Assembly: GCF_030143245.1 (NCBI RefSeq)
Contig: NZ_JARJNS010000004.1
Span: 434,001 to 498,000, forward strand
Origin: Rhabdaerophilum sp. SD176
Lineage (GTDB): Bacteria > Pseudomonadota > Alphaproteobacteria > Rhizobiales > Beijerinckiaceae
DNA length: 64,000 bases
Reading direction: 5' to 3'
Shown here: positions 1 to 18,637 of the stretch, one piece after another
Position numbering within the stretch: position 1 is the stretch's first letter
Layout of the letters: each line of letters begins with the position of its first letter
Position numbers and translations under genes: made by a program
Notes under the pieces: generated by a model
What the model was told of the DNA's origin: nothing
What the model saw: the letters and a program-made list of their open reading frames with translations, nothing else
Database searches by the model: none

Positions 1-1
1 A

Positions 2-2947: not shown

Positions 2948-3027
2948 GCGGCCCTCCTCGCGGCTTGGAAGTTGCCGGATTCGACGCGAGCCGAACCGGC
3001 AACCCTCATGATGGTGGATGTGCGGCC

Positions 3028-3339: not shown

Positions 3340-3540
3340 CAGAAACACTCCTTGGGTGGCGGCGCCATCAGCGGCGTCGGTCCCCAAACTGGGAGTGCTG
3401 CATTCCACCAGCATTTCGACGAACGGCGTTTTTGTTTCGGTGGATTTCGAGATCACCGTCCTGAAACATTTGGAAACATCCTGGGCTCTGGACCGATGCA
3501 CAGGAAGCCGCGAGAATGTCCGCACTAGACAGGAGGCTTC

Positions 3541-4263
3541 ATGAACCAACTGCACTCTGTCCTGATCGTCGATGACGACATCGAGATCAGGTCATTGCTG
3601 GAGCGCTATCTCAGAGGCAACCAGCTTTCTGCACGAACAGCGGCAGATGCTGGTCAGATGGACAGGATGATGGCGCGCGACAGCTTCGACTGTCTGGTGC
3701 TCGACCTGATGATGCCCGGAGAGGACGGGCTCGCGATCTGCCGCCGTCTCAGGGCCAAGGGCAACGACATCCCGATCATCATGTTGACTGCCAAGGGAAC
3801 CGACATCGACCGGATCATCGGGCTGGAGATGGGTGCCGACGATTATCTCGCCAAACCGTTCAACCCGCGCGAGCTCCTGGCACGGATCAGTGCCGTCTTG
3901 CGTCGGCGTCCAAAAGTGACGACAGGGGTGCCGGAAGCCGACGGCCAGATCGCGATAGGCGGCTTCACCCTGCATCTGAATACCCGCAAGCTGACGCGGC
4001 ACGACACCGAGCATCGCCTGACCACCGGCGAATTCGCGATGCTGCATGCCCTGGCATTGCGGCCGGGGCGGCCCTTGTCACGCGAACAATTGCTCGACCT
4101 CACCAAGGGCGGCGACGTCGCCGTGATGGACCGCAGCGTCGACATCCAGATCTTCCGGCTCAGGCAGCTCATCGAGGACGACCCGACCAAGCCCGAGCTC
4201 ATCCAGACCGTGCGCGGTCATGGCTATGTCTATGTGCCGCGGCTGGACGACGAGCCATCATGA
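3541..4263 (+). CDS. OmpR-family response regulator
   Basis: A 240-residue two-component regulator. The receiver domain (about 5-122) has the acidic pocket (IVDDDIE), phospho-acceptor D55 in VLDLMMPGEDG, T83 and K105 in LAKPFNP. It is followed by a winged-helix DNA-binding domain (about 140-235) ending RQLIEDDPTKPELIQTVRGHGYVYVP, as in OmpR/PhoB proteins. The next gene, a histidine kinase, starts inside its last codon (ATGA overlap), so the two are translationally coupled. The signal is unknown; divergent transcription with the secreted repeat protein makes that gene a candidate target. Confidence 0.95.
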   Translation: MNQLHSVLIVDDDIEIRSLLERYLRGNQLSARTAADAGQMDRMMARDSFDCLVLDLMMPGEDGLAICRRLRAKGNDIPIIMLTAKGTDIDRIIGLEMGADDYLAKPFNPRELLARISAVLRRRPKVTTGVPEADGQIAIGGFTLHLNTRKLTRHDTEHRLTTGEFAMLHALALRPGRPLSREQLLDLTKGGDVAVMDRSVDIQIFRLRQLIEDDPTKPELIQTVRGHGYVYVPRLDDEPS

Positions 4264-5561
4264 GCGGACATGGCTTGCCTCGCTGGCCACGGTCGTTGCT
4301 CGCGCGCAACGCGGCCCTGATTGTGGCTTTGGTGCTCGGCGGCCAGATCATCACCATCCTGGGCCATCTGCTGATGGTTCAGGTGCCGCGTGCCAACCAG
4401 CTGGCAGAACTGACAGGCCGTTACCTGACCGTGCTCGAACAGGCACTGGCATCGGCGGAGACTGGCGAGCGCGACCGCATCATCGCGGCCGCATCCACCG
4501 GCACCTTACGCATCGAACGCAACGGACCACCGGCGGCATCGGACTCGAACTGGCTCTCGCGGGTTTTTGTTGGGCGCATGGAGGTCCTCTTGCCGGGACG
4601 ACAGGTCGTCTTCACGCCAGCCCCTGACGAAGTGCTCTGGCTGGAAGCCAAGGCGGGCGCTGAACGGCTCTGGGTGGTGACCGAAGCCAAGGGCATCGTG
4701 GCCAGCAACTTCTACTCCTGGCTGATGATGTCATGTGCTGGCATCGCCATCGGGCTTGCCGGGGCCCTGCTGATCAACCGGAAGGTCAACCGGCCACTGG
4801 CGGAACTTGAACAAGCGGCTCGCCAGGTCGGGGCGGGCCTTGCCGTGCCGCAACTGCCCGAGGACGGGCCGGTCGAATTGGCCGCCGTCGCTGCAGCATT
4901 CAACCGGATGGTGCGCGATCTTGAAACAATGGAGAGGGATCGCGCCCTGATGCTTGCCGGCATCTCCCATGATCTCAGAACTCCGTTGACTCGGGCGCGC
5001 CTTGCCGTCGAGGTGCTCGGGGATAGCGCTGATAGGGATCTCACCGCGCGCATCGTCGACAGTATCGACAAGGTCGACCGGACACTCGGCCAGTTCCTCG
5101 CATTTGCGCGCGACGAGGCTGCCGAGCCGATTGTCTACGCTGAGATCAACCGGCTGGTTGCCGAGGTGGCCGAAAGCCATCGTCATTCCGGCGCGAAACT
5201 GGATCTTCAAACGGGAGAGTTGCCGCAGGTTGCCATTCGCCCCTTGGCGCTCGAGCGCGCCATCGAGAACCTTGTCGAAAACGCCCTGAAATACGGCAAG
5301 CCGCCCTTTATGCTGAGCACCAGCTTCGATGGCCACACCATCGATATCACCATGCGCGACCACGGCATCGGCATTTCTCCGGACGATGTCGAACGGCTGC
5401 TCCAGCCCTTCCAGCAACTCCGGTCGGACAACGGCCGCTCCGCCGGCCTCGGCCTTCCCATCGTCGCCCGCATCGCCCGGCTGCATGGTGGAGAGCTGAC
5501 GTTCCGGCATACCAACGATGGCGCATTTGAGGCCCGGATCAGGATCGCAACGGGCGTATGA
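4260..5561 (+). CDS. EnvZ-type sensor histidine kinase
   Basis: A 433-residue inner-membrane kinase. Topology: N-terminal membrane helix (about 17-40), a periplasmic sensor segment of some 110 residues, a second helix (about 153-173), a HAMP linker, the HisKA domain with phospho-accepting H237 in AGISHDLRTPLTRAR, and an HATPase domain with N-box (AIENLVENALKYG), G1 (DHGIGIS) and G2 (SAGLGLPIV). It should phosphorylate the response regulator encoded immediately upstream, with which it overlaps by four bases. The periplasmic part is too short and divergent to suggest a ligand. Confidence 0.94.
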   Translation: MSGHGLPRWPRSLLARNAALIVALVLGGQIITILGHLLMVQVPRANQLAELTGRYLTVLEQALASAETGERDRIIAAASTGTLRIERNGPPAASDSNWLSRVFVGRMEVLLPGRQVVFTPAPDEVLWLEAKAGAERLWVVTEAKGIVASNFYSWLMMSCAGIAIGLAGALLINRKVNRPLAELEQAARQVGAGLAVPQLPEDGPVELAAVAAAFNRMVRDLETMERDRALMLAGISHDLRTPLTRARLAVEVLGDSADRDLTARIVDSIDKVDRTLGQFLAFARDEAAEPIVYAEINRLVAEVAESHRHSGAKLDLQTGELPQVAIRPLALERAIENLVENALKYGKPPFMLSTSFDGHTIDITMRDHGIGISPDDVERLLQPFQQLRSDNGRSAGLGLPIVARIARLHGGELTFRHTNDGAFEARIRIATGV

Positions 5562-5949
5562 TGGAAGGCAGCCCCATTCTGCATCGGGACGGGGCCGTTG
5601 AACCAGGCTTCGCCCGTGTCGCGCGGCGGACAGCCCTGGTTTCGTGACATCCAGTGTTGAGCGAGGCCATCATTGCGGCCGGATGCCGTACCGATGCGTG
5701 GTGTCGTTCTCTGACCGCTGACGGCGTTCTGCCTTGGCCCGAACGGATGTGCCGATGCCGCCGCACAGAAAGACGTTGGGCTCCTCGAGCTGTCGAGCCA
5801 CATCGATGGAATATCAATGGGTGAGATCGATCTTGCGGGATGCGATCGCTCACTGAAATCGATAGCGAATTTCCGCAGACCTGACGCCCGTCATAAACTG
5901 TTCATGTGCATGCGATCTGTCATGCAAAGATCTATCGCGAGGGGTAGCC
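5562..5949. other. Intergenic region holding repeat copy A
   Basis: A 388-base gap between the kinase and the phytase-like gene. I see no convincing gene in its first 210 bases. Repeat copy A lies at 5776-5876, and an RBS-like GAGGGGT stands just before the start at 5950. Confidence 0.6.
5776..5876 (+). repeat. tRNA-Asn-tailed intergenic repeat, copy A (short)
   Basis: Starts with TTGGGCTCCTCGAGCTG, nearly the complement of the 3' end of tRNA-Asn (20389-20464), followed by TCGAGCCACAT, then a conserved body with GATCGCTCACTGAAATCGAT and AGCGAATTTCCGC. It matches copies B, C and D in order and orientation, but its centre (about 5818-5840) differs and similarity ends at 5876, so it lacks the roughly 60-base distal part present in the others. 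Confidence 0.85.
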
Positions 5950-7263
5950 ATGAAGCGTATCGGCCTGGGAATTCTCTGCGTTTTGTTCGGTTCCATTTCG
6001 GCAAGGGCGCTGGATGTGACGGTTCTGTCCGAGAGCGATCCAGCGCAACGCTTGCCGGGCATCTCGGCGCCGGGCGGGACGACGCTCAACTATTCGGTTG
6101 GCATCGGCTCCGCTGCCTTCCGTCACCCGCAGGACCCCGCGAATGTCATCTGGACAGTCGGGGATCGCGGCCCGAACATGACTTGCGGGGAGGCCGGAAA
6201 ACTTCTTTCCAAGGCGATTGCGGGGCTTTGCCAGAAACATCGGAACGGGCGCGTCTATCCGATGCCGGACTACACCCCTTCGATCTACAAGGTGGAACTC
6301 GATCTGGCCGGCAAGAGCTTCCGCGTTCTCGATACGATTCCCGTCAAGACCCGCTCTGGAAAGCCGATCGCCGGCCTGCTCAACCCGCAGACGAAGGCGA
6401 CGAAGGATACCGGCCTCGACATGGCCGGGACGGTTCTGCCGGACAATGCGGACAATCTCGATCTCGAGGGGATCGTCCGGCTTTCGGATGGCAGCTTCTG
6501 GATAGGCGAGGAAATGGGGCCATCCATTGCACATTTGTCTGCGGACGGCCGGATCCTGCGGCGTTTCGTGCCGGAAAACCAGGTCGATGACTACCGGAGC
6601 TCGGAAGCGGAGATCATTGGAGCGCTCCCGGCGATCCTCTCCCGGCGGCAAGGCAACCGGGGCATCGAATCCATGGCCATCTCGCCGGATGAGCAATTCC
6701 TGTATTTCATCATCCAGAATCCACTCGCGAACCCGAATGCCGCAACCTACGAAAAATCGCGGAATAGCCGCCTCTTCAAATTCGATCGTGTGGCCGGCAA
6801 ACTCGTGGGCGAGTGGGTCTATCAGCTGGATGAGCCGCGGACCTTCGCGCTCGACCCATCGGAGAAGCAGAACGATCCGCGCATATCGGAACTGACCGCC
6901 CTTGGGCCGGACCGCCTGCTGGTTTTGGAACGCACGGAGAAAACCACCAAGCTTCATGAAATCGTTCTGGCGGGCGCGACCAACATTCTCGGCAGTGCCT
7001 GGGACCGGATAGAGACCAGCCCGTCGCTGGAAGCCGAGAATGATCTGGCGAAGCTGTCCCTTGTTCCCGTTGCCAAGTCCCTGCGCTTCGACAGTGCGCG
7101 CGATTTTCCCGGTGCGCCGGAAAAGATCGAAGGTGTCGCCTTTCTTGGCGACGGCGCCATGGTTCTTATCAATGACAATGATTTTGGCATCCGCGGCGAC
7201 CAGACACGAATCCTGATCGTGCGGGGCGCTGTGTCGCCCGATGCCTCGGTCTACCGGCGCTGA
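5950..7263 (+). CDS. Secreted esterase-like phytase family protein
   Basis: A 437-residue exported protein with a signal peptide (MKRIGLGILCVLFGSISARA). The body is the phytase-like beta-propeller fold: TVGDRGPNMTC near residue 75, DLEGIVRLSDGSFWIGEEMGPS near 175-195, GIESMAISPDEQFLYF and GVAFLGDGAMVLINDNDFG near the end, all typical of this family. Members are predicted periplasmic phosphoester or ester hydrolases; measured substrates are few. RBS GAGGGGT precedes the ATG by a good distance. The gene is bracketed by direct repeat copies A and B about 1.6 kb apart, which may mark a mobile cassette. Confidence 0.85.
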   Translation: MKRIGLGILCVLFGSISARALDVTVLSESDPAQRLPGISAPGGTTLNYSVGIGSAAFRHPQDPANVIWTVGDRGPNMTCGEAGKLLSKAIAGLCQKHRNGRVYPMPDYTPSIYKVELDLAGKSFRVLDTIPVKTRSGKPIAGLLNPQTKATKDTGLDMAGTVLPDNADNLDLEGIVRLSDGSFWIGEEMGPSIAHLSADGRILRRFVPENQVDDYRSSEAEIIGALPAILSRRQGNRGIESMAISPDEQFLYFIIQNPLANPNAATYEKSRNSRLFKFDRVAGKLVGEWVYQLDEPRTFALDPSEKQNDPRISELTALGPDRLLVLERTEKTTKLHEIVLAGATNILGSAWDRIETSPSLEAENDLAKLSLVPVAKSLRFDSARDFPGAPEKIEGVAFLGDGAMVLINDNDFGIRGDQTRILIVRGAVSPDASVYRR

Positions 7264-7333
7264 GGCTGCGTGAATCACCAAACGAAAGCCGTGTGGAAGA
7301 GCGGTCGGCTACCCGACGCGGAAAGCAGGGGAG

Positions 7334-7495
7334 GGCTCCTCGAGCTGTCGAGCCACATTGATGGAAAATCAAGGACTTAACCAGTTTTTGCGGGATGAGA
7401 TCGCTCACTGATATCTATAGCGAAATTCCGCGCTTCCCCATGCCGATATCCCGGTAGGGCGGCTTTAAGCGCTGCGTCTTTATCCTTCCGCACGG
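7334..7495 (+). repeat. tRNA-Asn-tailed intergenic repeat, copy B
   Basis: Begins GGCTCCTCGAGCTGTCGAGCC and runs through GCGGGATGAGATCGCTCACTG, TATAGCGAAATTCCGCGC, GGCTTTAAGCGCTGCG to TTCCGCACGG. Weaker similarity to copy C continues to about 7521. It adjoins, and supplies the last codons of, the broken oxidoreductase gene on the minus strand, so it probably arrived after that gene or brought its deletion. Confidence 0.88.
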
Positions 7496-7783
7496 TTTGC
7501 TCATCGGGATCTTCTCCAGCAGATCCGTGCCGTGGCCGAAACTAAGGGGCGACAACACCAGGTCCTCGATGGTCACGACGGCTGCGCCCTCGAGCGTCCC
7601 GACCGGGACCTGGCACCAGCGGACCGCCTGACCGTCAACATGGACCGTGCAGGCACCACATAGTGCAACGCCGCAGCCATACTTTGTTCCCATGAGCCCC
7701 AGTTCATCACGCAAGACCCAAAGAAGCGGCGTATCGGCCGCAGCCTTTACGATCTGCGGGGCTCCGTTGACGGCAATCTGCAT
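7415..7783 (-). pseudogene. Truncated (2Fe-2S)-binding subunit of an IorA/CoxS-type oxidoreductase
   Basis: The reading frame begins normally: GGAGG is well placed before the ATG at 7783, and residues 1-75 are the plant-type ferredoxin domain with C37, C42, C45 and C57 ([15 protein letters not shown]). The family is about 150 residues and needs a second four-helix [2Fe-2S] domain with CGYC and CRC motifs; this is absent. After about residue 87 the frame runs into repeat copy B, which supplies a meaningless C-terminus. The large molybdenum subunit is not nearby. I infer a remnant of an isoquinoline-1-oxidoreductase-like or aldehyde-dehydrogenase-like operon; it should not be functional. Confidence 0.85.
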
Positions 7784-8414
7784 GCAAACGACCTCCGAGT
7801 GCTACCTGATGGAGCCTAGGATAAATTAGTATGGAGCGATCTTGACGGCCTTGGGGTTTGAAAATGGCTGAATTCGGCCATTTTTCAAACCCCGGGACCA
7901 CCGAAGGCGCGGCAGATCCGGGTCAGACCTTCCGTCCTGATCCTCACAAGCCCGATTGCTTCCTGCGGATCAGGCCAGAAACTCTGATCTCCAGATTTCC
8001 TCTCGTCAAAATGCGCCCGATTTATGGGTCTGGACCCTCAGCGGCACAACGCGTTACTCCGCAGGGAGGGTACTGTCCTGTTCCTGTGCCGTTCCAGCTT
8101 TCGATTTGGCCAGGGCGGCTTTCTCCATGGCCGCAACGTCGATGATTCCGCGCCGGGGGAAGGGGTTTGTCGCATCCGCCTTGCGCGTTCGGTTCACGAT
8201 GTCGATCACGACAGGAGATGTGGCGGCAAGGAAGTGATCTCGCGAATTCGGTAAGCCGGAGAGATCCAGCGACGTCCTGGCGTAAGTATTTGTTTTATAA
8301 CAATTAATTTCGCCCGGCAATTGATTTTTCTTTGTCGCAATTCGTCAAATTGTCTCCCGGAATGGGCAGACGAGGCGCATTGACCCGTCTGTCGATCTAC
8401 GCTTTACCGATCGC
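7784..8414. other. Gene-poor gap before the porin gene
   Basis: A 631-base region with a 41-base palindrome at 7853-7893 and an AT-rich stretch (about 8283-8350) directly upstream of the porin that is the likely promoter area. A minus-strand frame at 8054-8320 ends with a plausible-looking tail (AALAKSKAGTAQ) but starts only at TTG and matches no family I know. It could be a gene remnant. Confidence 0.5.
7853..7893. repeat. Near-perfect palindrome, arms about 17 bases
   Basis: GGGGTTTGAAAATGGC (7853-7868) pairs with GCCATTTTTCAAACCCC (7877-7893) apart from one extra T, around a short centre TGAATTCG. It could fold as a long hairpin, acting as a bidirectional terminator or as the joined ends of a vanished small element. 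Confidence 0.75.
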
Positions 8415-9800
8415 ATGGTCTCTGGATTGCGCGCAAAAAGATTGGCTTGGCCGGCGGCCGGGATCGTCGTTTTCGGTTCGATCCTTGCTGCGTCTGATCC
8501 TGCTTCAGCGCGGTTGCTCAAGGCGAGGCCGGCAAATGCTCCCTTGCTGGCTGCGTGCCATTTCTCAGAAGATACAGATGCTTATCTTCCCTTTCCGGTT
8601 TTCGACGGGCTCGACCTGCGTCAACTGACAGCAGGCTTCGCCAAATCTGCGCAGAAGAACGACAGCGCGAAAGCCGACGATGATGGCGAGGAAGAAGAGG
8701 ACGACGACGACGAGGAGGAGGAAACCGAGGATTCGGAACCGCCCGTGCGCAATTTCATTGCGGCGCACGCGCGGTCGGGCCTGCAGCGCGGGCCGTGCTA
8801 CAAAATTTCGGGGGCCGCGACCTATTCGGTAACGCTGAATGACGGGACCAACGGAGTCAGCCGCGCCAGCGACCGCCTGCTGAAGGAAGCACGCACCACC
8901 TTCGGTTTGCAGATGATCGAGGATTTGCCGATCGGTCGCTTTCGCGCCGCCATTGAACTCGATTGGTCCAGCGCCGCGGGCACCAGTTCGGGATCGGCGA
9001 ACAGCATCTGGATGAGCCTTGGTCCGGTGACGTTGGGTTTGAAGGGCTCGCACTTCGATTTCTGGGCCGGCGACGAGTTCGGGTTCAGGGCAACGGCGCC
9101 CTCGGCCTCGACCTTCCTGTCGTCGCTTGCCCTGCGCACCAGCGAAAAAAGCACGCTTGTCCTTTCGGCGGAGGACCCCATCACGCGCCGGCTGGCCGGT
9201 ACCGGATATGGAGGGGTTGCGGTGCCGGATTTCGTGGCCCGCTGGCAGTACGAGAATGACAGCACCACTTTGCATCTGGGTGGCGCGCTGCGCCAGCTGC
9301 GCTTCGAAGCGCCCACTCGCGCGACGCGGTATGGCTATGCAGCCATCGTCGGCGTTCAGCGGCAAATTGCCTGGTTCGGCACCGGTGATTATGTTATCGC
9401 GCAACTAACCTATGCCGATACGGCGCCTGGATTTCTCGGCATTGCCCAGCCCGGCGGCCTTCTGAATTTCACCTTACCGCGCAATGCCTCGGTTGTCATT
9501 CTGGAGACGATGCGTGGCTGGACCGCTGCTTTGGCCTACAGCCATGGCTGGTCGACGACCTGGCGGTCAAACGCCTTCGCCACCTATGTTGATCTGCAGC
9601 TGGCCGATGGTCCGGTACGCGGCCAGGTTCAGGTCGGACGGGCCGCACTCAACCTCGTCTGGACGCCATTTACAGGGCTCGATTTCACGTGGGAGCTTGG
9701 CGCAGGCCAGATCTATCGGGCCGATACGAACTTGGCGCTGACCAATATTTTCAAGCGCCGAAGCTATTCGGGCCAATTCGCTGTCTCGCGCAAATTCTGA
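8415..9800 (+). CDS. Outer-membrane porin (rhizobial type) with acidic tract
   Basis: A 461-residue beta-barrel protein. It has an N-terminal signal peptide ending near ASARLL, alternating hydrophobic beta strands throughout and a C-terminal Phe (AVSRKF) as required for BAM-dependent insertion. The segment GPCYKISGAATYSVTLNDG begins the porin domain in the manner of alphaproteobacterial porins (Porin_2). Unusual is a highly acidic run (about residues 90-110, almost all D/E) between signal and barrel. It stands upstream of the transporter and fatty-acid genes and may give outer-membrane passage for their substrates; that link is inference. Confidence 0.8.
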   Translation: MVSGLRAKRLAWPAAGIVVFGSILAASDPASARLLKARPANAPLLAACHFSEDTDAYLPFPVFDGLDLRQLTAGFAKSAQKNDSAKADDDGEEEEDDDDEEEETEDSEPPVRNFIAAHARSGLQRGPCYKISGAATYSVTLNDGTNGVSRASDRLLKEARTTFGLQMIEDLPIGRFRAAIELDWSSAAGTSSGSANSIWMSLGPVTLGLKGSHFDFWAGDEFGFRATAPSASTFLSSLALRTSEKSTLVLSAEDPITRRLAGTGYGGVAVPDFVARWQYENDSTTLHLGGALRQLRFEAPTRATRYGYAAIVGVQRQIAWFGTGDYVIAQLTYADTAPGFLGIAQPGGLLNFTLPRNASVVILETMRGWTAALAYSHGWSTTWRSNAFATYVDLQLADGPVRGQVQVGRAALNLVWTPFTGLDFTWELGAGQIYRADTNLALTNIFKRRSYSGQFAVSRKF

Positions 9801-10019
9801 CCAGTATGGGCAAGCTTTCCAATGTGTTGCCGAACCGATGCTTTCCTCAGGTCCAGTGTAGAGCTGGTCCAGATCCGAGGCCGATGAAAACATCCGACCA
9901 GTCCATTGATGCCGGCATTATGTCGCGAGAAAGGACGTTTGCGAAGGCGAGGGCGGGGTGGTGCGCCCAATCGGAGGAGCAATGCAGGCATGTTCCGCCA
10001 CGGGAACGCAAGCCGCATG

Positions 10020-10907
10020 TCATCCGCCCGGCGCTGATGTTGGACGTTCGCTGGATACCTTTTTGGCCGTTGCCCTGAAGAGCAACGTGACCAGCGAAGC
10101 CACGATCACGATGAAGAAGGAATAGAGCGCCGGCACGGCCATGTAGCTTTGCTGGTCAGGCCCGGTGAAGGTGAAGGCGATGATGCTGAAGGCCAGCGGC
10201 CCGTTCTGCAGCCCTGTCTCGATCCCCACCGTGCGTGCGTCAGTCTCATCCATCCGCAGCAGCCGCGCAACGCCATAGCCCAGCGCGATGCCGGCGATGC
10301 CGAGCGTGATAGCAGCGGTGTAAACGCCGCCGCGCGTTTCCATCAGGAACTGCCAGTTGCGCGGCACCCAGGCGGCGATCAGGAACAGGATGAAGACAAT
10401 GCCGAGCATCGAGCCTGTCCGTTCGGTGATCGCGCCGAGCCGCCCGCTGGCCCGCCGAATCAACATCCCGATCGCGACGGGCACGATCATGATCGCCAGC
10501 GCGATGATGATATTTTTGTGCGGGATCGTCAGTTTTAGCGCCCCGGCATAGAAGGTGAGGAGCAACGGGATCGCCACGACGCCAACGACTGTCGAGGCCA
10601 CAGTCATCATGACGGATAATGCCAGGTTCCCGCGGGCGAAATAGGTGAACATGTTCGAGGTCGTTCCGCCGGGCATGCAGGCGATGATCAGGACCCCGAC
10701 GGCCACGGCGTCTGGCAGGTCAAGGATCTTGACCAGGGCGAACCCGAGCATGGGCATGATCCCGTATTGGCAAGCGAGGCCAACAAGGAGTCCCTGTGGC
10801 CGCCTCGACGCCCGGCCGAAATCCCCGAGCGTGAGCGACGCGCCCATCCCCAACATGATGAAACACACGACGATCGCCGATACTGCCTGCTCGAGTTCTC
10901 CCACCAT
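10020..10907 (-). CDS. Bile acid:sodium symporter family transporter
   Basis: A 295-residue inner-membrane protein of the SBF/BASS family with about nine or ten hydrophobic helices. Diagnostic segments are ACMPGGTTSNMFTYFARGN (the Na+-site crossover region, about 77-95) and IETGLQNGPLAFSI (about 230-243). Homologues carry bile acids, pantothenate, pyruvate or other organic anions with sodium. It is divergent from the acyl-CoA ligase gene across a 176-base promoter region, so both may answer to the same substrate, for instance a steroid-like or branched acid destined for CoA activation. Specificity cannot be told from the sequence. Confidence 0.9.
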   Translation of the reverse strand: MVGELEQAVSAIVVCFIMLGMGASLTLGDFGRASRRPQGLLVGLACQYGIMPMLGFALVKILDLPDAVAVGVLIIACMPGGTTSNMFTYFARGNLALSVMMTVASTVVGVVAIPLLLTFYAGALKLTIPHKNIIIALAIMIVPVAIGMLIRRASGRLGAITERTGSMLGIVFILFLIAAWVPRNWQFLMETRGGVYTAAITLGIAGIALGYGVARLLRMDETDARTVGIETGLQNGPLAFSIIAFTFTGPDQQSYMAVPALYSFFIVIVASLVTLLFRATAKKVSSERPTSAPGG

Positions 10908-11083
10908 GGACTTCGTCCCCCCGCCGATTTGGTTTTCTCGTTGCGAAGCAGCCTAGGCGTATCGATGCGCCGGGTTTGTCCACTAATGGTCAAACTCGGC
11001 GCGACTGGCGTGGTATCGGTCGGCGAGAAAAGAAAAAAACGAGAGCCGCCGCCAAAGGCCAGCGGTCCCAGGGAGGTAACACG

Positions 11084-12745
11084 ATGCCCGACACGCTCTA
11101 TCCGGTGCCGTATGAGATGCTGCGCCAATGGGCAAGCAAGACGCCCGACCGGGTTTATCTTCGCCAGCCCGTCAACCGCGTCTACCGCGAGAAGACCTGG
11201 GCACAGGCGCATGATGAGGTGTTGCGCCTGGCAGCGGCTTTCCGTGCGTTAGGCCTGAAGAAAGGCGATGTCGTTGCGATCCTCGGCAAGAACACGGCAG
11301 AGTGGTTCATTTCGGATTTTGCCATCGCAGCAGCCGGCCTTATCCCGGCGCCGATCTATTTTACCGCAGGCGCCGACACGATCCGTTACGTGCTCGAGCA
11401 CAGCGAGGCCAAGGCGATCATCCTCGGGAAACTCGACAATCTCGAGCCTGCACGGCAGGGAATACCCGCGGGCGTCATGACGATTGCCCAGCCCTACGAG
11501 ACGCTGCCCTGCGATCATCAGATGACGGACCTGATCGCCTGCCACGCGCCGTTGGTCGACGTCAACATCCCCAAGATGGATGACACGTTCTCGCTGATCT
11601 ACACCTCGGGCACGACCGGCAATCCCAAAGGCATCGTCGTGACCTTCAGGAATATCGGCTACAGTTCGACAACAGCGGTCGAGGCTCTCAACTATACCGA
11701 AAATGACCGGTTGATTTCCTATCTGCCGCTCGCCCATATCACCGAACGGGCGATGGTTCAGCATGTCGGGCTCTATCACGGCTGTTCGGTTGCCTTCACC
11801 GAGAGCCTCGATACCTTCGCCGAAGATGTGCGCAACGCGTCCCCGACCATCTTTATCTCGGTTCCCCGGCTCTGGATGAAGTTCCAGAGCGGAATCCTCG
11901 CCAAGTTGCCCCAGAAGAAGCTGGATCGACTGCTTCGTATCCCCGTCGTCCGGGGCATGGTGAAGAAGAAGATCAAGAAACTTCTGGGCCTGAGCAGCAC
12001 GCGGATTTGCGGCTCGGGAGCAGCACCCATTTCGCCTGCTGTGCTGGAATGGTTCTCGCGCCTCGACATCAATATTACCGAAGGGTTCGGGATGAGCGAA
12101 ACTTCGGGCCTCGTGACCGTCAATTATCCATTCAGGCATTCCAAGATCGGCACGGTCGGCGGCCCTGCCAAGGAGGCGAGGATCAAGATCTCTGATGAAG
12201 GGGAATTGTTGATTGCGGGTGATTGCATCGTCAAAGGCTACTACAAGGACCCCGAGAAAACCTCCGAGACGTTCCGCGACGGCTGGCTCCATACCGGAGA
12301 CATGGGCGAGATCGACACCGATGGCAGCCTGAAGATCACGGGCCGTGTGAAGGAGTTGTTCAAGACCGGCAAGGGGAAGTATGTCGCCCCGGTCCCGATC
12401 GAGAGCCTGATCGCGGAGAATCCTTACGTGGAGCAGATTTGCGTAATGGGTTCAGGCCTGCCGCAGCCGGTGGCTGTGGTGGTCAGGGGTGACGCGGTGG
12501 GTGACATCATGAGCCTTGGGGAAGAAAAGACGGGCCTTGCCGAGACGCTGAAGAAGACCAATGCGCGCCTTGAGGGGCATGAAAAGCTCAGCCACATCGT
12601 GGTGGCCAAGGAGCCCTGGACGATCGAGAACGGCCTTCTGACCCCGACGAGGAAGATCAAACGCAATCTGGTTGAAAAGAAATATGCCGATCTGATTGCC
12701 AGGCCCAGAACCGATGCCGTGGTCTTCGAGGGGACCAACAGCTGA
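11084..12745 (+). CDS. AMP-binding long-chain acyl-CoA synthetase
   Basis: A 553-residue acid-CoA ligase that activates a carboxylic acid through an acyl-adenylate. The start at 11084 has GGGAGGT nearby; an open extension upstream is non-coding. Signatures: A3 motif YTSGTTGNPKG (about 180), A5 TEGFGMSET, A7 WLHTGDMGEID, and A8 ITGRVKELFKTGKGKYVAPVPIE, all of the FadD15/long-chain class. It heads a same-strand set with a thiolase and an HAD-ECH protein (next gene after 122 bases), forming most of a beta-oxidation path. An acyl-CoA dehydrogenase is missing and must be encoded elsewhere. Confidence 0.93.
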   Translation: MPDTLYPVPYEMLRQWASKTPDRVYLRQPVNRVYREKTWAQAHDEVLRLAAAFRALGLKKGDVVAILGKNTAEWFISDFAIAAAGLIPAPIYFTAGADTIRYVLEHSEAKAIILGKLDNLEPARQGIPAGVMTIAQPYETLPCDHQMTDLIACHAPLVDVNIPKMDDTFSLIYTSGTTGNPKGIVVTFRNIGYSSTTAVEALNYTENDRLISYLPLAHITERAMVQHVGLYHGCSVAFTESLDTFAEDVRNASPTIFISVPRLWMKFQSGILAKLPQKKLDRLLRIPVVRGMVKKKIKKLLGLSSTRICGSGAAPISPAVLEWFSRLDINITEGFGMSETSGLVTVNYPFRHSKIGTVGGPAKEARIKISDEGELLIAGDCIVKGYYKDPEKTSETFRDGWLHTGDMGEIDTDGSLKITGRVKELFKTGKGKYVAPVPIESLIAENPYVEQICVMGSGLPQPVAVVVRGDAVGDIMSLGEEKTGLAETLKKTNARLEGHEKLSHIVVAKEPWTIENGLLTPTRKIKRNLVEKKYADLIARPRTDAVVFEGTNS

Positions 12746-12867
12746 TTGGAGCTGGCCTGAGCGCGCGCTCCGGCCATTCACCGGCCTGCTTCTGACTGCC
12801 AGAAATGACAAAGGCCAGTTCAAGGCAGCGAAACGCATAACCTGTTACACCTGAGAAAGACACGCCC

Positions 12868-14004
12868 ATGACAAAAGCTGTAATCGCGGGGTATGCCCGG
12901 TCGCCTTTCACGCTGGCCCGGAAAGGCGCGCTCAGTTCCGTGCGCCCCGATGACATGGCGGCGCAAGTCATTCGCGGGCTGATCGAGCGGACGGGTGTGG
13001 AACCCGCCGATATCGAGGACCTCATTGTGGGCTGCGCCTTCCCTGAGGGCGAACAGGGCTTCAACATCGCGCGGATGGTTGCACTCATGGCCGGGCTGCC
13101 GGAGAGCGTCGCCGGGGCCACGGTGAACCGTTACTGCGGATCCTCGATGAGCGCGCTCCACATGGCTGTCGGGGCGATTGCCGCCGGGGCGGGCCATGCC
13201 TTCATCTGTGCAGGCGTGGAAAGCATGACGCGCGTGCCGATGCTGGGGTTCAACCCCATGCCCAACGCGGCCTTCGCCAAGCGCATGCCCGCAGCCTATA
13301 TGGGCATGGGCGAGACGGCCGAGAATGTTGCCGATCGCTGGCAGATTTCGCGCGCTGATCAGGAGGTCTTCGCCGTCATTAGTCAGGCAAAGGCCGCCGC
13401 TGCGCAGGCTGCCGGCAAGCTGGCCGACGAGATCGTTGCGGTGGACAGCCCCGCCGGACCTGTGTTGCAGGATGGGTGTCTGCGTCCCGGCACCACGGCC
13501 GAGGCGCTTGCCGAACTCAAGCCGGCATTCAGCCAGACAGGCTCGGTGACAGCGGGCACGTCTTCTCCTCTGACCGATGGAGCCGCCGCCATGCTCGTCT
13601 GTTCGGAGGAATATGCCAAGGCGCACGGAATGCAGGTTCTGGCCCGGATTCGCAGCATGGCGGTGGCCGGATGCAGCCCCGAGATCATGGGCATTGGCCC
13701 GGTCGTGAGCAGCAGAAAGGCGTTGGATCGGGCGGGGCTCAGCGCAAAGGATCTGAACGTGACCGAACTGAATGAGGCCTTCGCGAGCCAGGCTTTGGCC
13801 TGCATGCGCGATCTCGGCCTTGATCCCGACACGGTCAATATTGACGGTGGCGCAATTGCACTCGGGCATCCGCTTGGCGCCACCGGTGCACGGATTACGG
13901 GCAAGGCCGCCATGCTACTGAAGCGCGAGGGCGGCGCGTTTGCGCTCGCGAGCCAATGCATCGGCGGGGGCCAGGGCATCGCAACCGTCCTGGAGGCCGT
14001 CTGA
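12868..14004 (+). CDS. Acetyl-CoA C-acyltransferase (thiolase)
   Basis: A 378-residue thiolase catalysing the last step of beta-oxidation, 3-ketoacyl-CoA plus CoA to acetyl-CoA and a shortened acyl-CoA. Catalytic residues are in place: nucleophile C90 in NRYCGSSM, H334 in GGAIALGHPLGATG and C364 in ASQCIGGGQG. It is the usual length. The stop overlaps the start of the next gene (TGATG), so the thiolase and the multifunctional protein are translationally coupled, as in fadA/fadB-type operons. Confidence 0.94.
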   Translation: MTKAVIAGYARSPFTLARKGALSSVRPDDMAAQVIRGLIERTGVEPADIEDLIVGCAFPEGEQGFNIARMVALMAGLPESVAGATVNRYCGSSMSALHMAVGAIAAGAGHAFICAGVESMTRVPMLGFNPMPNAAFAKRMPAAYMGMGETAENVADRWQISRADQEVFAVISQAKAAAAQAAGKLADEIVAVDSPAGPVLQDGCLRPGTTAEALAELKPAFSQTGSVTAGTSSPLTDGAAAMLVCSEEYAKAHGMQVLARIRSMAVAGCSPEIMGIGPVVSSRKALDRAGLSAKDLNVTELNEAFASQALACMRDLGLDPDTVNIDGGAIALGHPLGATGARITGKAAMLLKREGGAFALASQCIGGGQGIATVLEAV

Positions 14005-16319
14005 TGTCCGGGATCGAGAAAGTTGCCGTCATCGGCGCCGGCGTCATGGGGGCCGGAATCGCGGCCCATGTCGCCAATGCCGGCGTGCCTGTCTTGCTCT
14101 TCGATATCGTGCCCGAAGGGGCGCGCGACCGCAGCTTGGTTGCCAAGGGTGCGCTGGACGCGCTGCAAAAAGCCAAACCTCCGGCCTTCATGCAGGGCTC
14201 GGCGGCGAAACGCGTGGTCCCGTGCAACATCGAGGATGATCTTCCGGCGCTGGCCGAGTGTGACTGGATCATCGAAGCGGTCACGGAACGGCTCGATGTG
14301 AAGCACGCGATTTACGCCAAGATCGATGCGCATCGGAAGACGGGATCGATCGTGTCCTCGAACACGTCGACCATCCCGCTATCTGTGCTGACCGGAGGGC
14401 TTGGCGAGGCGTTTGCCGCCGATTTTGTCGTCACGCATTTCTTCAATCCGCCGCGTTACATGCCACTGCTCGAGCTTGTCGCGAGTTCGCAAACGCGCCC
14501 GACGGCCATCGATTCGGTCCGCGACTTCTGCGATCACCGCCTTGGCAAGGGCGTTGTGCGATGCAACGACCGGCCGGGCTTCATTGGCAATCGCCTTGGC
14601 GTGTACTGGGGCCTCTCGGCGATCAACGCGGCCATAGATCTGGGCCTGACCGTCGAGGAGGCCGATGCCGTGATGGGTCGGCCTTTGGGCATCCCCAAGA
14701 CGGGCATTTTTGGGATGGCCGATCTCGTCGGCCTGGATCTGATGCCGCTCGTGGCCAAAAGTCTTGGCAACGCGCTGCCGCCCGAGGATTCCTTCCATGC
14801 CTTGCTGCGCCCGCAACCGATCATGGAGCAGCTGGTTGCCGCTGGATATACCGGCCGGAAGGGCAAGGGCGGCTTCTACCGGCTGAACCGCGCGGCTGGC
14901 AATCGCAAGGAGGCAGTCGACCTTCAGACCGGCGAGTATCGCCCAGCCATGCGGGTCGACATCCCGATCCTGAAGCATGCCCGCGTGACACCGCTGGCCT
15001 TGATCGACGATGACAGCAAGTATGGCCGTTTTGCACGGCGCGTCCTGGGTGAGACCCTATCCTACGCCGCATGTCTTGTCGGCGACGCGGCCGACAGCGT
15101 CGAGGCCATCGATGAGGCAATGAGGCTGGGTTACGATTGGGAACGCGGACCTTTCGAGTTGATCGACAGGATCGGCATCACAGCATTTGTCGCACGGCTC
15201 AAGGCCGATGGGCTCGCGGTGCCAGAGCTTCTGAAGGTGGCCGGGGCCCGGCCGTTCTACGACGCGAGCGGCGGACGCCGGCAGGTGCTGCAAAGTTCCG
15301 GCGGCTATACGGACATGGTGCGGCCTGATGGGGTCCTGCTTCTGGACGATGTTAAGCGCACGAGCCCGCCGGTGATCGGCGGTGAGTCGGCTGCGCTTTG
15401 GGATATCGGCGATGGCGTTGCGTGTTTCGAGATTACGACGCGCATGAACACGCTCGATGGCCAGGTTCTTGCCCAACTCGAGGCCAGCCTCGAGCGCGCG
15501 GACAAAGACTTCGACGCCCTGGTCATCTACAGCGACGGGCCACATTTTTCGGCCGGGGCGAATCTTGCACAGCTGGCCGGCGCGCTCGACAACGCTGATG
15601 CCATCGCCAACATCGTGGCCTATGGCCAGCACGTCATGACGCGCCTGCGCGACAGTGATATCCTGATCGTTGCCGCGCCGGCGGGCTTGGCGCTGGGCGG
15701 CGGCTGCGAACTGGCGTTGCACGCCAATGCCATTCAGGCGCATGCGGAATGCTATATGGGCCTCGTCGAAGTTGGTGTGGGGCTGATCCCGGGCTGGGGC
15801 GGGTGCAAGGAGCTGCTTTGGCGCCTTTCCACGGCGAAGGCGATGCCGCGCGGTCCGATGCCGGCAGCCATGAAGGCCTTCGAAACCATCTCGACGGCCA
15901 AGGTCTCCGGCTCCGCAGCCGAGGCGAGAGAGATGGGCTTCCTGAGACCGGGTGATGGGATCACCATGAACCGGCGGCGGCTTCTGACGGACGCGAAGAC
16001 GAAGGCGCGCGAGATGGTGACACGTCGGGTCCCTTCCGAACCGCCGCGCTTTCAGCTGCCGGGCCTATCGGGCGAGACGCTTTTGGTCTCATCGGCCGAG
16101 GCGATGGCCCGCATGGGCCTTGCGACGGACCATGATGTCACGATCTGCGCCCGGCTGGCGCATGTCCTGACGGGTGGCGGGGCCAACCTGATCGAGGTCC
16201 TCGACGAGGCTCGGCTGCTGGAACTGGAACGCGAGGCATTCATCGGCCTTCTGGCCGAACCCAAAAGCCGTGAGCGGATCGCGCACATGCTTGAATCCGG
16301 CAAGCCCCTGAGGAATTGA
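14004..16319 (+). CDS. 3-hydroxyacyl-CoA dehydrogenase / enoyl-CoA hydratase fusion
   Basis: A 771-residue beta-oxidation protein. The start at 14004 (MSGIEKVAVIGAG) overlaps the thiolase stop; it gives an N-terminal NAD-binding Rossmann motif GAGVMGAGIAAHVANAG. The dehydrogenase domain (FFNPPRYMPLLELV, about 150) and its C-terminal repeats fill the first 450 residues. The crotonase domain follows, with FSAGANLAQLAGA and the oxyanion-hole region GLALGGGCELALHA (about 515-580). The order HAD then ECH differs from E. coli FadB (ECH then HAD) and matches a class common in proteobacteria. It hydrates enoyl-CoA and oxidises the hydroxy product. Confidence 0.92.
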   Translation: MSGIEKVAVIGAGVMGAGIAAHVANAGVPVLLFDIVPEGARDRSLVAKGALDALQKAKPPAFMQGSAAKRVVPCNIEDDLPALAECDWIIEAVTERLDVKHAIYAKIDAHRKTGSIVSSNTSTIPLSVLTGGLGEAFAADFVVTHFFNPPRYMPLLELVASSQTRPTAIDSVRDFCDHRLGKGVVRCNDRPGFIGNRLGVYWGLSAINAAIDLGLTVEEADAVMGRPLGIPKTGIFGMADLVGLDLMPLVAKSLGNALPPEDSFHALLRPQPIMEQLVAAGYTGRKGKGGFYRLNRAAGNRKEAVDLQTGEYRPAMRVDIPILKHARVTPLALIDDDSKYGRFARRVLGETLSYAACLVGDAADSVEAIDEAMRLGYDWERGPFELIDRIGITAFVARLKADGLAVPELLKVAGARPFYDASGGRRQVLQSSGGYTDMVRPDGVLLLDDVKRTSPPVIGGESAALWDIGDGVACFEITTRMNTLDGQVLAQLEASLERADKDFDALVIYSDGPHFSAGANLAQLAGALDNADAIANIVAYGQHVMTRLRDSDILIVAAPAGLALGGGCELALHANAIQAHAECYMGLVEVGVGLIPGWGGCKELLWRLSTAKAMPRGPMPAAMKAFETISTAKVSGSAAEAREMGFLRPGDGITMNRRRLLTDAKTKAREMVTRRVPSEPPRFQLPGLSGETLLVSSAEAMARMGLATDHDVTICARLAHVLTGGGANLIEVLDEARLLELEREAFIGLLAEPKSRERIAHMLESGKPLRN

Positions 16320-16748
16320 CTGCGCGGGTGAACAACGTCTTCCAAGATGGGCTGGTTGTCGCCCGCAATGCAGGCATGAACATAATTGCCATGGTACGCG
16401 CCTGACCTGTGAGACGGGAGTTCAAGGGGCAAGCCGTTCGGCCCTTGGCTCGGCGGGTTCGGGACGGCCGGCGGTGGTTGGCCTCCAGAACGACCAGATG
16501 CTGCCCCGCTTCTTGTGCTCAGCCGCAAAAAGCGCGGGCACCAATTGGTTAGGAAGATGGCTCCTCGAGCTGTCGGGCCACGTGGATGGAATATCAATGA
16601 CTTAACCCGATTTTTCGGGATGAGATCGCTCGCTGATATCTATAGCGAATTTCCGCGCTTCCCCACGCGAGTATCTGCGTAAATCCGTTTTAAGCGCCGC
16701 GTGTTTATCTTTCCGTGCGGCGGGGTCGATCCCGATCTGCTCCAATCC
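16320..16748. other. Intergenic region with repeat copy C
   Basis: A 429-base gap between the convergent HAD-ECH gene and the YqaA-family gene. The first 238 bases show no gene; the rest is repeat copy C (16558-16720), ending 28 bases from the downstream stop codon. Confidence 0.6.
16558..16720 (+). repeat. tRNA-Asn-tailed intergenic repeat, copy C
   Basis: Begins TGGCTCCTCGAGCTG, which includes the complement of the encoded CCA, the discriminator base and the 3' acceptor strand of tRNA-Asn. It continues with CCCGATTTTTCGGG (a perfect 5-bp stem), TATAGCGAATTTCCGCGC, TTTTAAGCGCCGCG and ends TTCCGTGCGG. Full length, same orientation as A, B and D. Confidence 0.88.
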
Positions 16749-17378
16749 CTACAGAACAAGCGGCAGCACGAAGAAGCCGCCGACGAGGAAGAACAGCAGG
16801 ATGAAGGTCGCAAGCTTCAGCTGTTTCTCCATGAATTCGCGGATCCTGTTGCCATAGACACGCAACGCGGCCGCAAAGATGAAGAAGAACGTGACGCGGG
16901 CGACGATTGTCGCGAACGTGAACTTCAGCAGATCGAAATGCAGGAAGCCCGACATGATGGTTGCGATCTTGAATGGGATCGGAGTCAGCCCCTTCGTGAT
17001 CAAGATCCAGAACCACGCATCATGCGTGCTTTTCTGCAGCTCAGCTGCTTTGTCGCCGAGGCCATAAAGCGAGATGATCCAGAGGCCTAGCGTTTCATAG
17101 AGCCCATAGCCAATGGCGTATCCGACCAAACCGCCGGCCACCGATGACATCGCGCAGACCATCGCATAGTGCCAGGCCTTCTTTGGGTTCGCGAGGCACA
17201 TCGGGATCAGCAGCGGCAGCGGGGGGATGGGGCTAATCGAGCTTTCAATGAAAGAGATCGCAGCCAGCACCCAAACCGCATTCGGGTGGTTCGCATAGGA
17301 GACCACCCAATCGTATGCGCGCTGCAATATGCCGGGCTTTGCCACCGGCGCGACGAGATGATTGTCTTGAGACGTCAT
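16749..17378 (-). CDS. YqaA/DedA-type VTT-domain membrane protein
   Basis: A 209-residue inner-membrane protein of the DedA superfamily (SNARE-associated/VTT domain). It shows the re-entrant segment FIESSISPIPPLPLLIPM (about 43-60), the GGLVGYAIGYGLYETLG helix and a second conserved loop ITKGLTPIPFKIATIMSGF, typical of YqaA proteins. DedA proteins move lipid carriers or polar lipids across the bilayer in the cases studied; the YqaA branch is less known. The gene lies alone between direct repeats C and D, 1 kb apart. Confidence 0.88.
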   Translation of the reverse strand: MTSQDNHLVAPVAKPGILQRAYDWVVSYANHPNAVWVLAAISFIESSISPIPPLPLLIPMCLANPKKAWHYAMVCAMSSVAGGLVGYAIGYGLYETLGLWIISLYGLGDKAAELQKSTHDAWFWILITKGLTPIPFKIATIMSGFLHFDLLKFTFATIVARVTFFFIFAAALRVYGNRIREFMEKQLKLATFILLFFLVGGFFVLPLVL

Positions 17379-17854
17379 TGCAGCCCTTCAACCCGGCACG
17401 CGCCTTGGCGGACGGGTCTTAGCGCTTTGTATTACTATGTCCACATTTAAGAACTGGCTGGCTGCTGATGGGTATAGCCCTGTGGCGGCATCAGCCGCCA
17501 GCACTCAGAAACCTGCTCGGGACAGAAAAGATGTTGGCTCCTCGAGCTGTCGAGCCACATTCTCATGAAATCAACGGCTTAACCCGATTTTGCGGGATGC
17601 GTTCGCTCACTGAAATCGATAGCGAATTTCCGCATTTCCCCACGCGAATATCCAAGTAAATCCGCTTTAAGGGCCGTGGAGATATCCTCGAAACGCGGGT
17701 TGCCGCGTCATCGGAGATCATCCGCCCGCGACCGCCCCAGAGCCTTTTCGGCACCATCACCCCCAATCCCGATCGCTCGGCCTCTTAACCAACCCGCTTA
17801 ACCGGGCGTACAGAGGTTTCGAACAATCTAGGCCAGCTCCCGGTAGGAGGCCTG
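17379..17854. other. Intergenic region with repeat copy D
   Basis: A 476-base gap between divergently transcribed genes. It holds the YqaA promoter side, repeat copy D (17534-17690) and the leader of the ABC transporter with TAGGAGG just before its ATG. Confidence 0.6.
17534..17690 (+). repeat. tRNA-Asn-tailed intergenic repeat, copy D
   Basis: Begins TTGGCTCCTCGAGCTG, 16 bases identical to the tRNA-Asn 3' end region at 20388-20403 (complement strand, including CCA). It continues through CCCGATTTTGCGGG, AATCGATAGCGAATTTCCGC, CCCCACGCGAATATC, AATCCGCTTTAAG and ends less conserved near 17690. Same orientation as the other three. Confidence 0.88.
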
Positions 17855-18637
17855 ATGCCATCCGCGCTGTCTGTTCGCGGCCTTGTCAAGCGCTTCGGCG
17901 CCCAATCCGCTGTCGATCATCTCGATCTTTCGATCCGGGAGGGGGAGTTCTACGCGCTGCTTGGCCCCAATGGCGCGGGCAAGACGACGACGCTCCGCAT
18001 CGTCGCTGGCCTGCTGTCGCCGGATTCGGGTGCGGTCGAGGTCTTCGGCATCGATCGGCTACGCGATCCGCTCGCCGCCAAGCAGGTGATGGCTTGGGTG
18101 CCGGACGAGCCGACGGTCTATGACAAGCTGACGCCAGCCGAATATCTCGCCTTCGTCGCCGCGCTCTGGGGGATCGATGGGGCGGCCGCGCGGCGGCGCG
18201 CCGATGAACTGATGCAGCGCCTCGAGTTGACGCCGGTGGCCGATCAGCGCTGCGAAGGCTTCTCGCGCGGCATGAAGCAGAAGGTGGCGCTCGCCGGCGC
18301 GCTGATCCACCAGCCCCGGCTCCTGATCCTCGACGAGCCGCTCACCGGTCTCGACGCGGCAATGGCGCGCGTCGTCAAGGATATCCTTGGCGAATGCACG
18401 GCGGAAGGCGCGACAATCATCCTGACGACGCATATCCTGGAAGTCGCTGAGCGCATGGCAGACCGGATCGGCATCATCCGCCGGGGCCGGCTCGTCGCCG
18501 AAGGGACGATGGGGGAATTGCGTCAACGCTTCGAGCGCGCCGACGGCACGCTCGAGGAGGTGTTCCTCGATGTGGTCGCAGAGGGACAAGAGACCCGCGG
18601 ACAGGACTCCGACGGACAGGGTATGGCCGCCGCATGA
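17855..18637 (+). CDS. ABC transporter ATP-binding protein
   Basis: A 260-residue ABC ATPase of the exporter (CcmA/ABC-2-like) class. Walker A GPNGAGKTT (37-45), the signature region GFSRGMKQKVALAGAL, Walker B LLILDEPLTGLD and the switch histidine in TTHILEVAE are all present. The strong RBS TAGGAGG supports the start. Its stop overlaps the permease start (ATGA). The C-terminus is a polar tail (GQETRGQDSDGQG). It powers the permease encoded next; the cargo is unknown. Confidence 0.94.
   Translation: MPSALSVRGLVKRFGAQSAVDHLDLSIREGEFYALLGPNGAGKTTTLRIVAGLLSPDSGAVEVFGIDRLRDPLAAKQVMAWVPDEPTVYDKLTPAEYLAFVAALWGIDGAAARRRADELMQRLELTPVADQRCEGFSRGMKQKVALAGALIHQPRLLILDEPLTGLDAAMARVVKDILGECTAEGATIILTTHILEVAERMADRIGIIRRGRLVAEGTMGELRQRFERADGTLEEVFLDVVAEGQETRGQDSDGQGMAAA

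What the first reader, a model, noticed from the sequence alone, without database searches (positions are those of the whole stretch)
5776..17690. Four direct copies of a repeat that begins with the 3' end of tRNA-Asn
Copies A (5776-5876), B (7334-7495), C (16558-16720) and D (17534-17690) lie on the same strand. Each starts with GGCTCCTCGAGCTG, the complement of the tRNA-Asn(GUU) acceptor and T-arm 3' end at 20389-20464, in C and D including the encoded CCA. The rest of the tRNA is replaced by a conserved body of up to 150 bases with small hairpins. All copies lie on the 3' side of tRNA-Asn. Seen: the match and the order. Inferred: either remnants of successive integrations at tRNA-Asn, each leaving an attL with a conserved element arm, or a tRNA-derived non-autonomous mobile repeat. 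I know of no named family with this structure.
Basis: partly seen in the sequence, partly recalled or inferred. Interest (0 to 1): 0.75.

Follow-up and report, generated by a model that had tools for sequence, protein, structure and literature searches.

The report
Stacked genomic-island scars beside a tRNA
One tRNA gene in this bacterium has been hit again and again by incoming mobile DNA, and each arrival left a similar scar of roughly 150 bases, so the scars can be read like layers; the process is known, but this example is unusually legible.

Summary
The four repeats are real, and a fifth (E) lies 4 kb before the window. These are the only strong copies in the 3.96-Mb genome; all lie on one strand within 24.4 kb on the 3' side of tRNA-Asn. 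Each is best read as the distal end (attR) of an inserted element: 14 nt of tRNA-Asn 3' end joined to a conserved attachment arm of about 100-165 nt with an IHF-like box.

Two before/after comparisons support this. In sister genome G015 (no copy) the DNA that flanks copy E here abuts tRNA-Asn directly. The far end of the C-D (DedA) segment abuts tRNA-Asn in G013 but copy D here. Copies tend to decay with distance from the tRNA (permutation p=0.0033).

No integrase was found in the segments of G000, G016, G014 and G013. In G003 the same arm ends a 17-kb stretch whose other end carries a tyrosine integrase, 75 bp from a tRNA-Asn-like end: the likely cognate enzyme.

This is tandem accretion of integrase-less (CIME-like) elements at a tRNA gene, much as described for Dehalococcoides ssrA islands (passages). 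It is a new member of a known kind.

The parts
20389..20464 (-). tRNA-Asn(GUU): the integration target; its 3' end (TGG + CTCCTCGAGCTG as read on the + strand) is the shared core
   Evidence: ARAGORN; Rfam; conserved next to tRNA-Cys in 16 of 17 genomes of the genus
17531..17689 (+). Copy D: core 17536-17549, IHF-like box 17569-17581, attachment arm; copy nearest the tRNA
   Evidence: profile hit; core; IHF box 0 mismatches
16553..16723 (+). Copy C: core 16559-16572, IHF-like box 16592-16604, attachment arm
7330..7496 (+). Copy B: core 7334-7347, IHF-like box 7367-7379, attachment arm
5773..5877 (+). Copy A: core 5779-5792, IHF-like box with 1 mismatch 5812-5824; arm shorter than in B, C, D
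17690..20388 (.). Segment D-tRNA: ABC transporter ATPase-like ORF 17855-18637 and the ORF behind it 18634-20145 (no Pfam match; called permease by position and composition)
   Evidence: ORFs; Pfam of 18634-20145 gave 0 families; ATPase named from its sequence, no family search run
16724..17530 (.). Segment C-D: one DedA/VTT-like gene 16749-17378 (-); also in G013 and G016
   Evidence: VTT_dom E 1.8e-5, below Pfam's cut-off; shared segment
7497..16552 (.). Segment B-C: 2Fe-2S ORF 7415-7783 (-) that runs into copy B, SBF symporter 10020-10907 (-), acyl-CoA synthetase-like, thiolase-like and 3-hydroxyacyl-CoA dehydrogenase-like ORFs
   Evidence: Pfam run on 7415-7783, 8415-9800 and 10020-10907 only; the other names are recalled from sequence
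5878..7329 (.). Segment A-B: one esterase-like-phytase gene 5950-7263 (+)
   Evidence: PF13449 E 1.2e-47
1..5772 (.). Part of segment E-A inside the window: P450-like and ATP-grasp-like ORFs, fatty acid hydroxylase 2135-3268 (-), response-regulator-like and sensor-kinase-like ORFs; the segment starts at copy E (C19:430043, about 4 kb before the window)
   Evidence: Pfam run on 2135-3268 only among these

Best explanation
Each repeat is the distal attachment site (attR) of an element that integrated at the 3' end of tRNA-Asn: a 14-nt core identical to the tRNA end, followed by about 100-165 nt of the element's own arm with an IHF-like bend site and a possible integrase arm site. A new element recombines with the core in the intact tRNA, rebuilds the tRNA 3' end from its own copy, and pushes older elements away from the tRNA; the old cores and arms stay behind as ordered scars. 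The enzyme is most likely a tyrosine integrase of the kind found in G003. The present segments carry no integrase and are decayed, CIME-like elements. Shown: the junctions, the empty site, the order, the absence of a detectable integrase in the arrays. Inferred: the recombination itself, the role of IHF, that the G003 enzyme is the cognate one, and that the integrases were lost rather than never present.
For: (1) Own genome: the five copies with E<=3.4e-13 lie on one strand within 24.4 kb on the 3' side of tRNA-Asn. (2) Empty site: the 300 nt left of copy E's core match the 300 nt next to tRNA-Asn in G015 at 88% and the flanks of the outermost copies in G016 (91%) and G014 (81%); comparisons with G000's own tRNA flank give 49-53%. 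(3) Second before/after pair: the end of the DedA segment abuts tRNA-Asn in G013, copy D in G000 and copy 6247 in G016. (4) 6 of 17 genomes of the genus have copies; of 17 copies, 9 are on a contig with tRNA-Asn, on its 3' side in one orientation, and one more is tied to it by an exact 99-nt contig overlap. (5) 15 of 17 copies have the tail with at most 3 mismatches (read; 8 exact and 2 with one mismatch). (6) IHF consensus WATCAANNNNTTR 33 nt from the core: 0 mismatches in 6 of 17 copies, 1 in 5; 15 of 2000 shuffles of one copy reach 0. (7) Profile score falls with distance from the tRNA: rho -0.6, -0.86, -1.0 (5, 7 and 2 copies), combined permutation p 0.0033. (8) G003: the same arm at C14:35600, type I restriction genes, then a tyrosine integrase with TGGCTCC 75 bp beyond its stop; in homologous loci the stop-to-tRNA distance is 7-93 bp in 19 of the 23 loci measured. 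(9) Array genes are closer between G000 and G013 at fourfold sites (0.80-0.89) than 7 of 8 host genes (0.51-0.71; exception 0.86).
Against: No integrase or remnant was found in the arrays (best E 4.7), so the enzyme is not seen where the scars are. In G003 the integrase is 16 kb from the arm copy, the tRNA-like match is only 7 nt, and that contig does not contain the tRNA. The TCCCCA motif that repeats 3 times beside the G003 integrase is absent from the corresponding ends of the integrase-less segments except one. 6 of the 7 G016 copies and the G003 copy lie on contigs without tRNA-Asn. Two of 17 copies (G013, G012) lack the tail. The decay test uses a profile built from the same copies, some of which are orthologous or truncated. 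Only 6 of 17 copies have a perfect IHF box. G000-G016 fourfold identity of the ATP-grasp gene (0.77) is within the host range.
Confidence: 0.9

Rival explanations
1. Cassettes moved in trans: the segments never carried an integrase and are small mobile cassettes inserted at tRNA-Asn by an integrase encoded elsewhere, so the arm works like an integron attC site anchored on a tRNA.
For: No integrase found in 14 complete segments and one interrupted by a contig gap (5 in G000, 6 + 1 in G016, 2 in G014, 1 in G013). The DedA segment is about 1 kb, has one gene, is found in three species and is more similar between them (fourfold 0.89-0.92) than host genes.
Against: The proximal ends of the segments lack the repeated TCCCCA motif seen beside the G003 integrase, except one. 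The 2Fe-2S ORF 7415-7783 runs into copy B, which looks like deletion. No G003-like integrase (E<=1e-15) in G000, G014, G015 or G016. Transfer in larger blocks explains the similarity too.
Confidence: 0.15
2. A tRNA-derived non-autonomous dispersed repeat (SINE- or MITE-like) that copies itself.
For: The copies share a tRNA tail and a body.
Against: Five copies in one genome, all at one locus and orientation; no terminal inverted repeats evident; precise junction with the empty site at the tRNA; segments between copies differ.
Confidence: 0.02
3. Chance or convergent similarity: a transcribed or regulatory element with a CTCGAG palindrome that merely resembles the tRNA end.
For: CTCGAG is palindromic and the tail is only 14 nt.
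Against: In G015 the tRNA-Asn itself occupies the exact place of the outermost core, and the DedA segment end is joined to tRNA-Asn in G013 and to a copy in G000. No Rfam family reached its cut-off in the window except tRNA.
Confidence: 0.01
4. The array grew by tandem duplication or homologous recombination between repeats rather than by site-specific insertion.
For: Two neighbouring segment ends in G016 (5431 and 967) are similar and both segments hold RHS-like ORFs, so some duplication is likely there.
Against: Segments in G000 have different genes; new segments appear exactly between an old segment and the tRNA.
Confidence: 0.05

Closest known systems
Dehalococcoides ssrA genomic islands (PMC3146451; passages seen)
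   Same: Tandem islands downstream of one RNA gene, each ended by a direct repeat of its 3' end; 28 repeats aligned with extra conservation beside them; 15 islands without an integration module, suggested there to be cis-mobilizable elements.
   Different: Target is tmRNA and the recombinase cluster differs; the conserved part outside the repeat is a 15-bp motif there, about 100-165 nt with an IHF-like box here.
CIMEs and tandem accretion of ICEs/IMEs (PMC5704250; passages seen)
   Same: Elements that keep att sites but lost integration and transfer genes, stacked by later insertion at the same site.
   Different: Best described there in streptococci; here up to 7 copies per genome, some segments about 1 kb, and excision not tested.
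Additive flexible genomic islands (Methylophilaceae tRNA-Lys repeats, PMC10872708, passages and part 1 of section 13; Actinomarinales, PMC7771536, passages)
   Same: Gene cassettes inserted at a tRNA and marked by direct repeats of its 3' end.
   Different: In what I saw of those papers no conserved arm of this length is described.
Klebsiella asn-tDNA islands (PMC4891358; passages seen)
   Same: Islands at asparagine tRNA genes, 17-20-bp repeats of the tRNA end, some composites by tandem accretion.
   Different: Different host and integrases; those islands usually keep an integrase gene.
Tycheposons (known to me through PMC10872708, and recall; original paper not seen)
   Same: Cargo elements at tRNA genes with a tyrosine recombinase.
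   Different: No tycheposon genes were sought; segments here carry no recombinase.
Integron cassette arrays (recalled)
   Same: Ordered cassettes separated by a conserved recombination site, with growth at one end.
   Different: No IntI, no attC-like fold beyond shuffles, target is a tRNA gene.

Membership tests
Tandem accretion array of genomic islands at a tRNA gene | Direct repeats of the tRNA 3' end bound each inserted segment | tested here: met
   15 of 17 copies keep the tail with at most 3 mismatches (read)
Tandem accretion array of genomic islands at a tRNA gene | Empty site in a relative, with flanks joined at the tRNA | tested here: met
   G015 against G000, G016, G014
Tandem accretion array of genomic islands at a tRNA gene | New elements added at the tRNA-proximal end | tested here: met
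   DedA segment end next to tRNA in G013, next to copy D in G000 and copy 6247 in G016; decay gradient
CIME (cis-mobilizable element) | No integration or transfer genes | tested here: met
   no tyrosine integrase and no large serine recombinase in the arrays; conjugation genes were not searched for systematically
CIME (cis-mobilizable element) | Both attL and attR retained | tested here: inconclusive
   distal arm and cores retained; the proximal arm motif seen in G003 is absent from the segment ends except one
CIME (cis-mobilizable element) | Mobilised in cis with a neighbouring element | not testable with these tools
   needs excision or transfer assays
Tyrosine-integrase att site | IHF site and integrase arm sites in the arm | tested here: inconclusive
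   IHF consensus perfect in 6 of 17 copies; TCCCCA shared by the arm (12 of 17 copies) and the G003 integrase end; binding not tested
Integron | IntI integrase and folded attC sites | tested here: not met
   no integrase in the arrays; no fold beyond shuffles for copy C
SINE/MITE-like repeat | Copies dispersed over the genome | tested here: not met
   five copies at one locus

The most novel reading that the evidence does not exclude
A tRNA-anchored cassette system: integrase-less one-gene cassettes, each ended by the same arm, are moved between species in trans by an integrase that visits on elements such as the one in G003, and are stored in order at tRNA-Asn, much as an integron stores cassettes.
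Probability: 0.15. Interest if true: 0.7.

Novelty: new member of a known kind. Interest (0 to 1): 0.36.

Why it matters
The locus shows a time-ordered record of gene gain in one place, with an empty relative, an intermediate, and a candidate autonomous element in sister species. That makes it possible to ask when and how elements lose their integrase, and whether integrase-less cassettes still move, using one recombination site. It also shows how a housekeeping tRNA gene stays intact through at least five insertions. The principle is already established, so the gain is a clear case rather than a new mechanism.

Tried and rejected
Palindromic body: the first profile hit both strands, but I had put two G016 copies in backwards; with the copies turned correctly the minus-strand hits vanished. 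The palindrome idea is withdrawn.

RNA or hairpin function: Rfam at its cut-offs gives only tRNAs; below the cut-offs only weak matches outside the copies. Copy C does not fold better than shuffles. Other copies were folded without a shuffle control.

Phage or plasmid origin: no match of copy C in the phage or plasmid records; none of the body pattern in viral contigs; no relative of the G003 integrase there by its six peptide patterns.

Wider occurrence: family sample, 7 of 397 genomes at E<=0.001, of which six are the genus members and G203 is a 26-nt match; order sample, 3 of 397, of which two are matches of 26-32 nt. In these two searches only 2 candidates per genome were scored. A body pattern in named genomes gave 7 stretches in 5 genomes: four Beijerinckiaceae/Hyphomicrobiales/Methylobacterium MAGs and one Paenibacillus alvei contig, which I take for chance and did not follow up.

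A trans-acting integrase in the array genomes: I looked at non-Xer integrase places of G000, G016, G014 and G013 (17 stretches, one of them from G001). Where a tRNA was found it was Tyr, Thr, Ser, Leu or Trp, except G001 (Asn and Cys). No copy was found near them.

Fourfold-site test: I dropped three ORFs (host_28920, host_31857, g290) because identity of 0.88-1.0 at 'fourfold' sites with low protein identity shows a wrong reading frame. host_34343 (0.86 in G013) is kept as an exception. host_39124 had no match in G013.
Full report
What is there. The window holds four same-strand copies of a repeat (A-D) that start with 14 nt of the tRNA-Asn 3' end. The own genome (G000, 3.96 Mb, 25 contigs) has a fifth, E, 4 kb before the window. 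The five have E<=3.4e-13 and the next of 23 listed places has E=0.304. All lie at C19:430043-451676, on the 3' side of tRNA-Asn at C19:454389 and in one orientation.

Relatives. In the genus, 6 of 17 genomes have copies at E<=0.001: G000 5, G016 7, G014 2, and G013, G003, G012 one each, 17 in all. Nine of the 17 are on a contig that holds tRNA-Asn, on its 3' side. The G012 copy is linked to it by an exact 99-nt overlap of contig ends. The other seven (six in G016, one in G003) lie on contigs without it. In samples of the family and the order, further matches are only 26-32 nt long, with the limit that two candidates per genome were scored.

Empty site. G015 has no copy. Next to its tRNA-Asn lies the DNA that in G000, G016 and G014 lies outside the outermost copy: 300-nt flanks are 81-91% identical among these four, against 49-53% when compared with G000's own tRNA flank. 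So the whole array sits exactly at the tRNA 3' end.

Intermediate state. The DedA segment (C-D) is in G000, G016 and G013. Its proximal end is joined to tRNA-Asn in G013, to copy D in G000 and to copy 6247 in G016. Later segments were therefore inserted between it and the tRNA, at the core. The G013 copy at the distal end of this segment has lost its tail, and G013 has an extra stretch inside the segment.

Order and age. Profile scores fall with distance from the tRNA: rho -0.6 in G000 (5 copies), -0.86 in G016 (7) and -1.0 in G014 (2), combined permutation p 0.0033 (scores, test). This is supportive only: the profile was built from the same copies, A and E are short, and E and G016's 22254 are orthologues.

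The arm. Alignment of 17 copies shows a conserved body of about 100-165 nt. At 33 nt from the core start lies a match to the IHF consensus, perfect in 6 of 17 and with one mismatch in 5; 15 of 2000 shuffles of one copy do as well as a perfect match. The consensus itself is recalled. TCCCCA lies 101 nt from the core in 10 copies and at 107 and 112 in two whose start is shifted or lost, 12 of 17 in all. Copy C does not fold beyond shuffles on either strand.

The enzyme. PF00589 hits at E<=1e-8 in the 17 genomes include none on the array contigs of G000 (C19), G016 (C5, C11), G014 (C4) or G013 (C85). A profile from the G003 integrase and 32 relatives finds nothing in the arrays better than E=4.7, while it recovers G003 (2e-147) and a fragment in G001 (4e-37). 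No large serine recombinase lies there either. That covers 14 complete segments and one cut by a contig gap. In G003 the arm copy (C14:35600) is followed by type I restriction genes and, 16 kb on, a 341-aa tyrosine integrase. Beyond its stop codon, 75 bp on, comes TGGCTCC, the last seven bases of tRNA-Asn. In related integrase loci the tRNA starts 7-93 bp beyond the stop in 19 of 23 measured; the exceptions are L113, L130, L133 and L136; 24 of the 34 held loci have a tRNA and L110 was not measured. The stretch between stop and TGGCTCC holds TCCCCA or its complement three times. I read this as an element of about 17.3 kb with its own integrase and the same distal arm. Weak points: seven bases are few, the contig does not include the tRNA, and behind TGGCTCC comes an AbiEi-like ORF and conjugation genes (TrbI, CagX, VirB8). 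Next to tRNA-Asn in G003 itself is a serine recombinase ORF that reaches into the tRNA end, with ArdC, ParB and RepA-like genes further on: probably a second, later element.

Movement between species. At fourfold-degenerate sites G000 and G013 agree at 0.80-0.89 in four array genes, but at 0.51-0.71 in seven of eight host genes, the exception being 0.86. For G000 and G016 the contrast is weaker: array 0.77-0.92; host and backbone 0.61-0.80, with 0.85 and 0.86 in one gene each. So array DNA has probably moved between species, singly or in blocks.

Decay or trans movement. The segments' proximal ends lack the repeated TCCCCA motif except one, and the 2Fe-2S ORF at 7415-7783 runs into copy B. Both favour decayed elements. 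The one-gene DedA segment in three species leaves room for movement in trans.

What is known. The passages I saw describe this process: CIMEs and accretion (PMC5704250), tandem ssrA islands with 28 repeats and 15 integrase-less islands (PMC3146451), additive islands with tRNA-Lys repeats (PMC10872708), cassettes at tRNAs in Actinomarinales (PMC7771536), and Klebsiella asn islands (PMC4891358). Seven paper searches listed nothing on this locus or genus, but they showed only the top of long lists. Verdict: a new member of a known kind, with a well-preserved order.

Noticed in passing
L073:525-2201 (-) (G003:C13): A serine recombinase ORF (Resolvase, Recombinase and zinc-ribbon domains) ends inside the tRNA-Asn 3' end, a second kind of recombinase at the same tRNA.
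   Followed up: partly
L079 about 5141-19492 (G011:C14): About 14 kb without any copy of the repeat, with TctA and TctC transporter genes, lies between tRNA-Asn and the gene that abuts it in several other genomes.
   Followed up: no
L110/L156 (G001:C12:229039-229329): A fragment of the same integrase family lies beside tRNA-Cys, the neighbour of tRNA-Asn.
   Followed up: partly
L064:804-5438 (G016:C5): Two neighbouring segments have similar proximal ends and RHS-like ORFs, perhaps a duplicated segment.
   Followed up: no
window 7415-7783 (-): A 2Fe-2S ORF of 122 aa reads into the arm of copy B, so its 3' end was probably cut when the segment formed.
   Followed up: no
L120:1725 (G291:C126): An exact copy of the 14-nt tail without the body, about 1.6 kb from the contig's integrase end; maybe chance.
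   Followed up: no
L083 (Paenibacillus alvei contig): One exact match to the 22-letter body pattern in an unrelated genome, probably chance.
   Followed up: no
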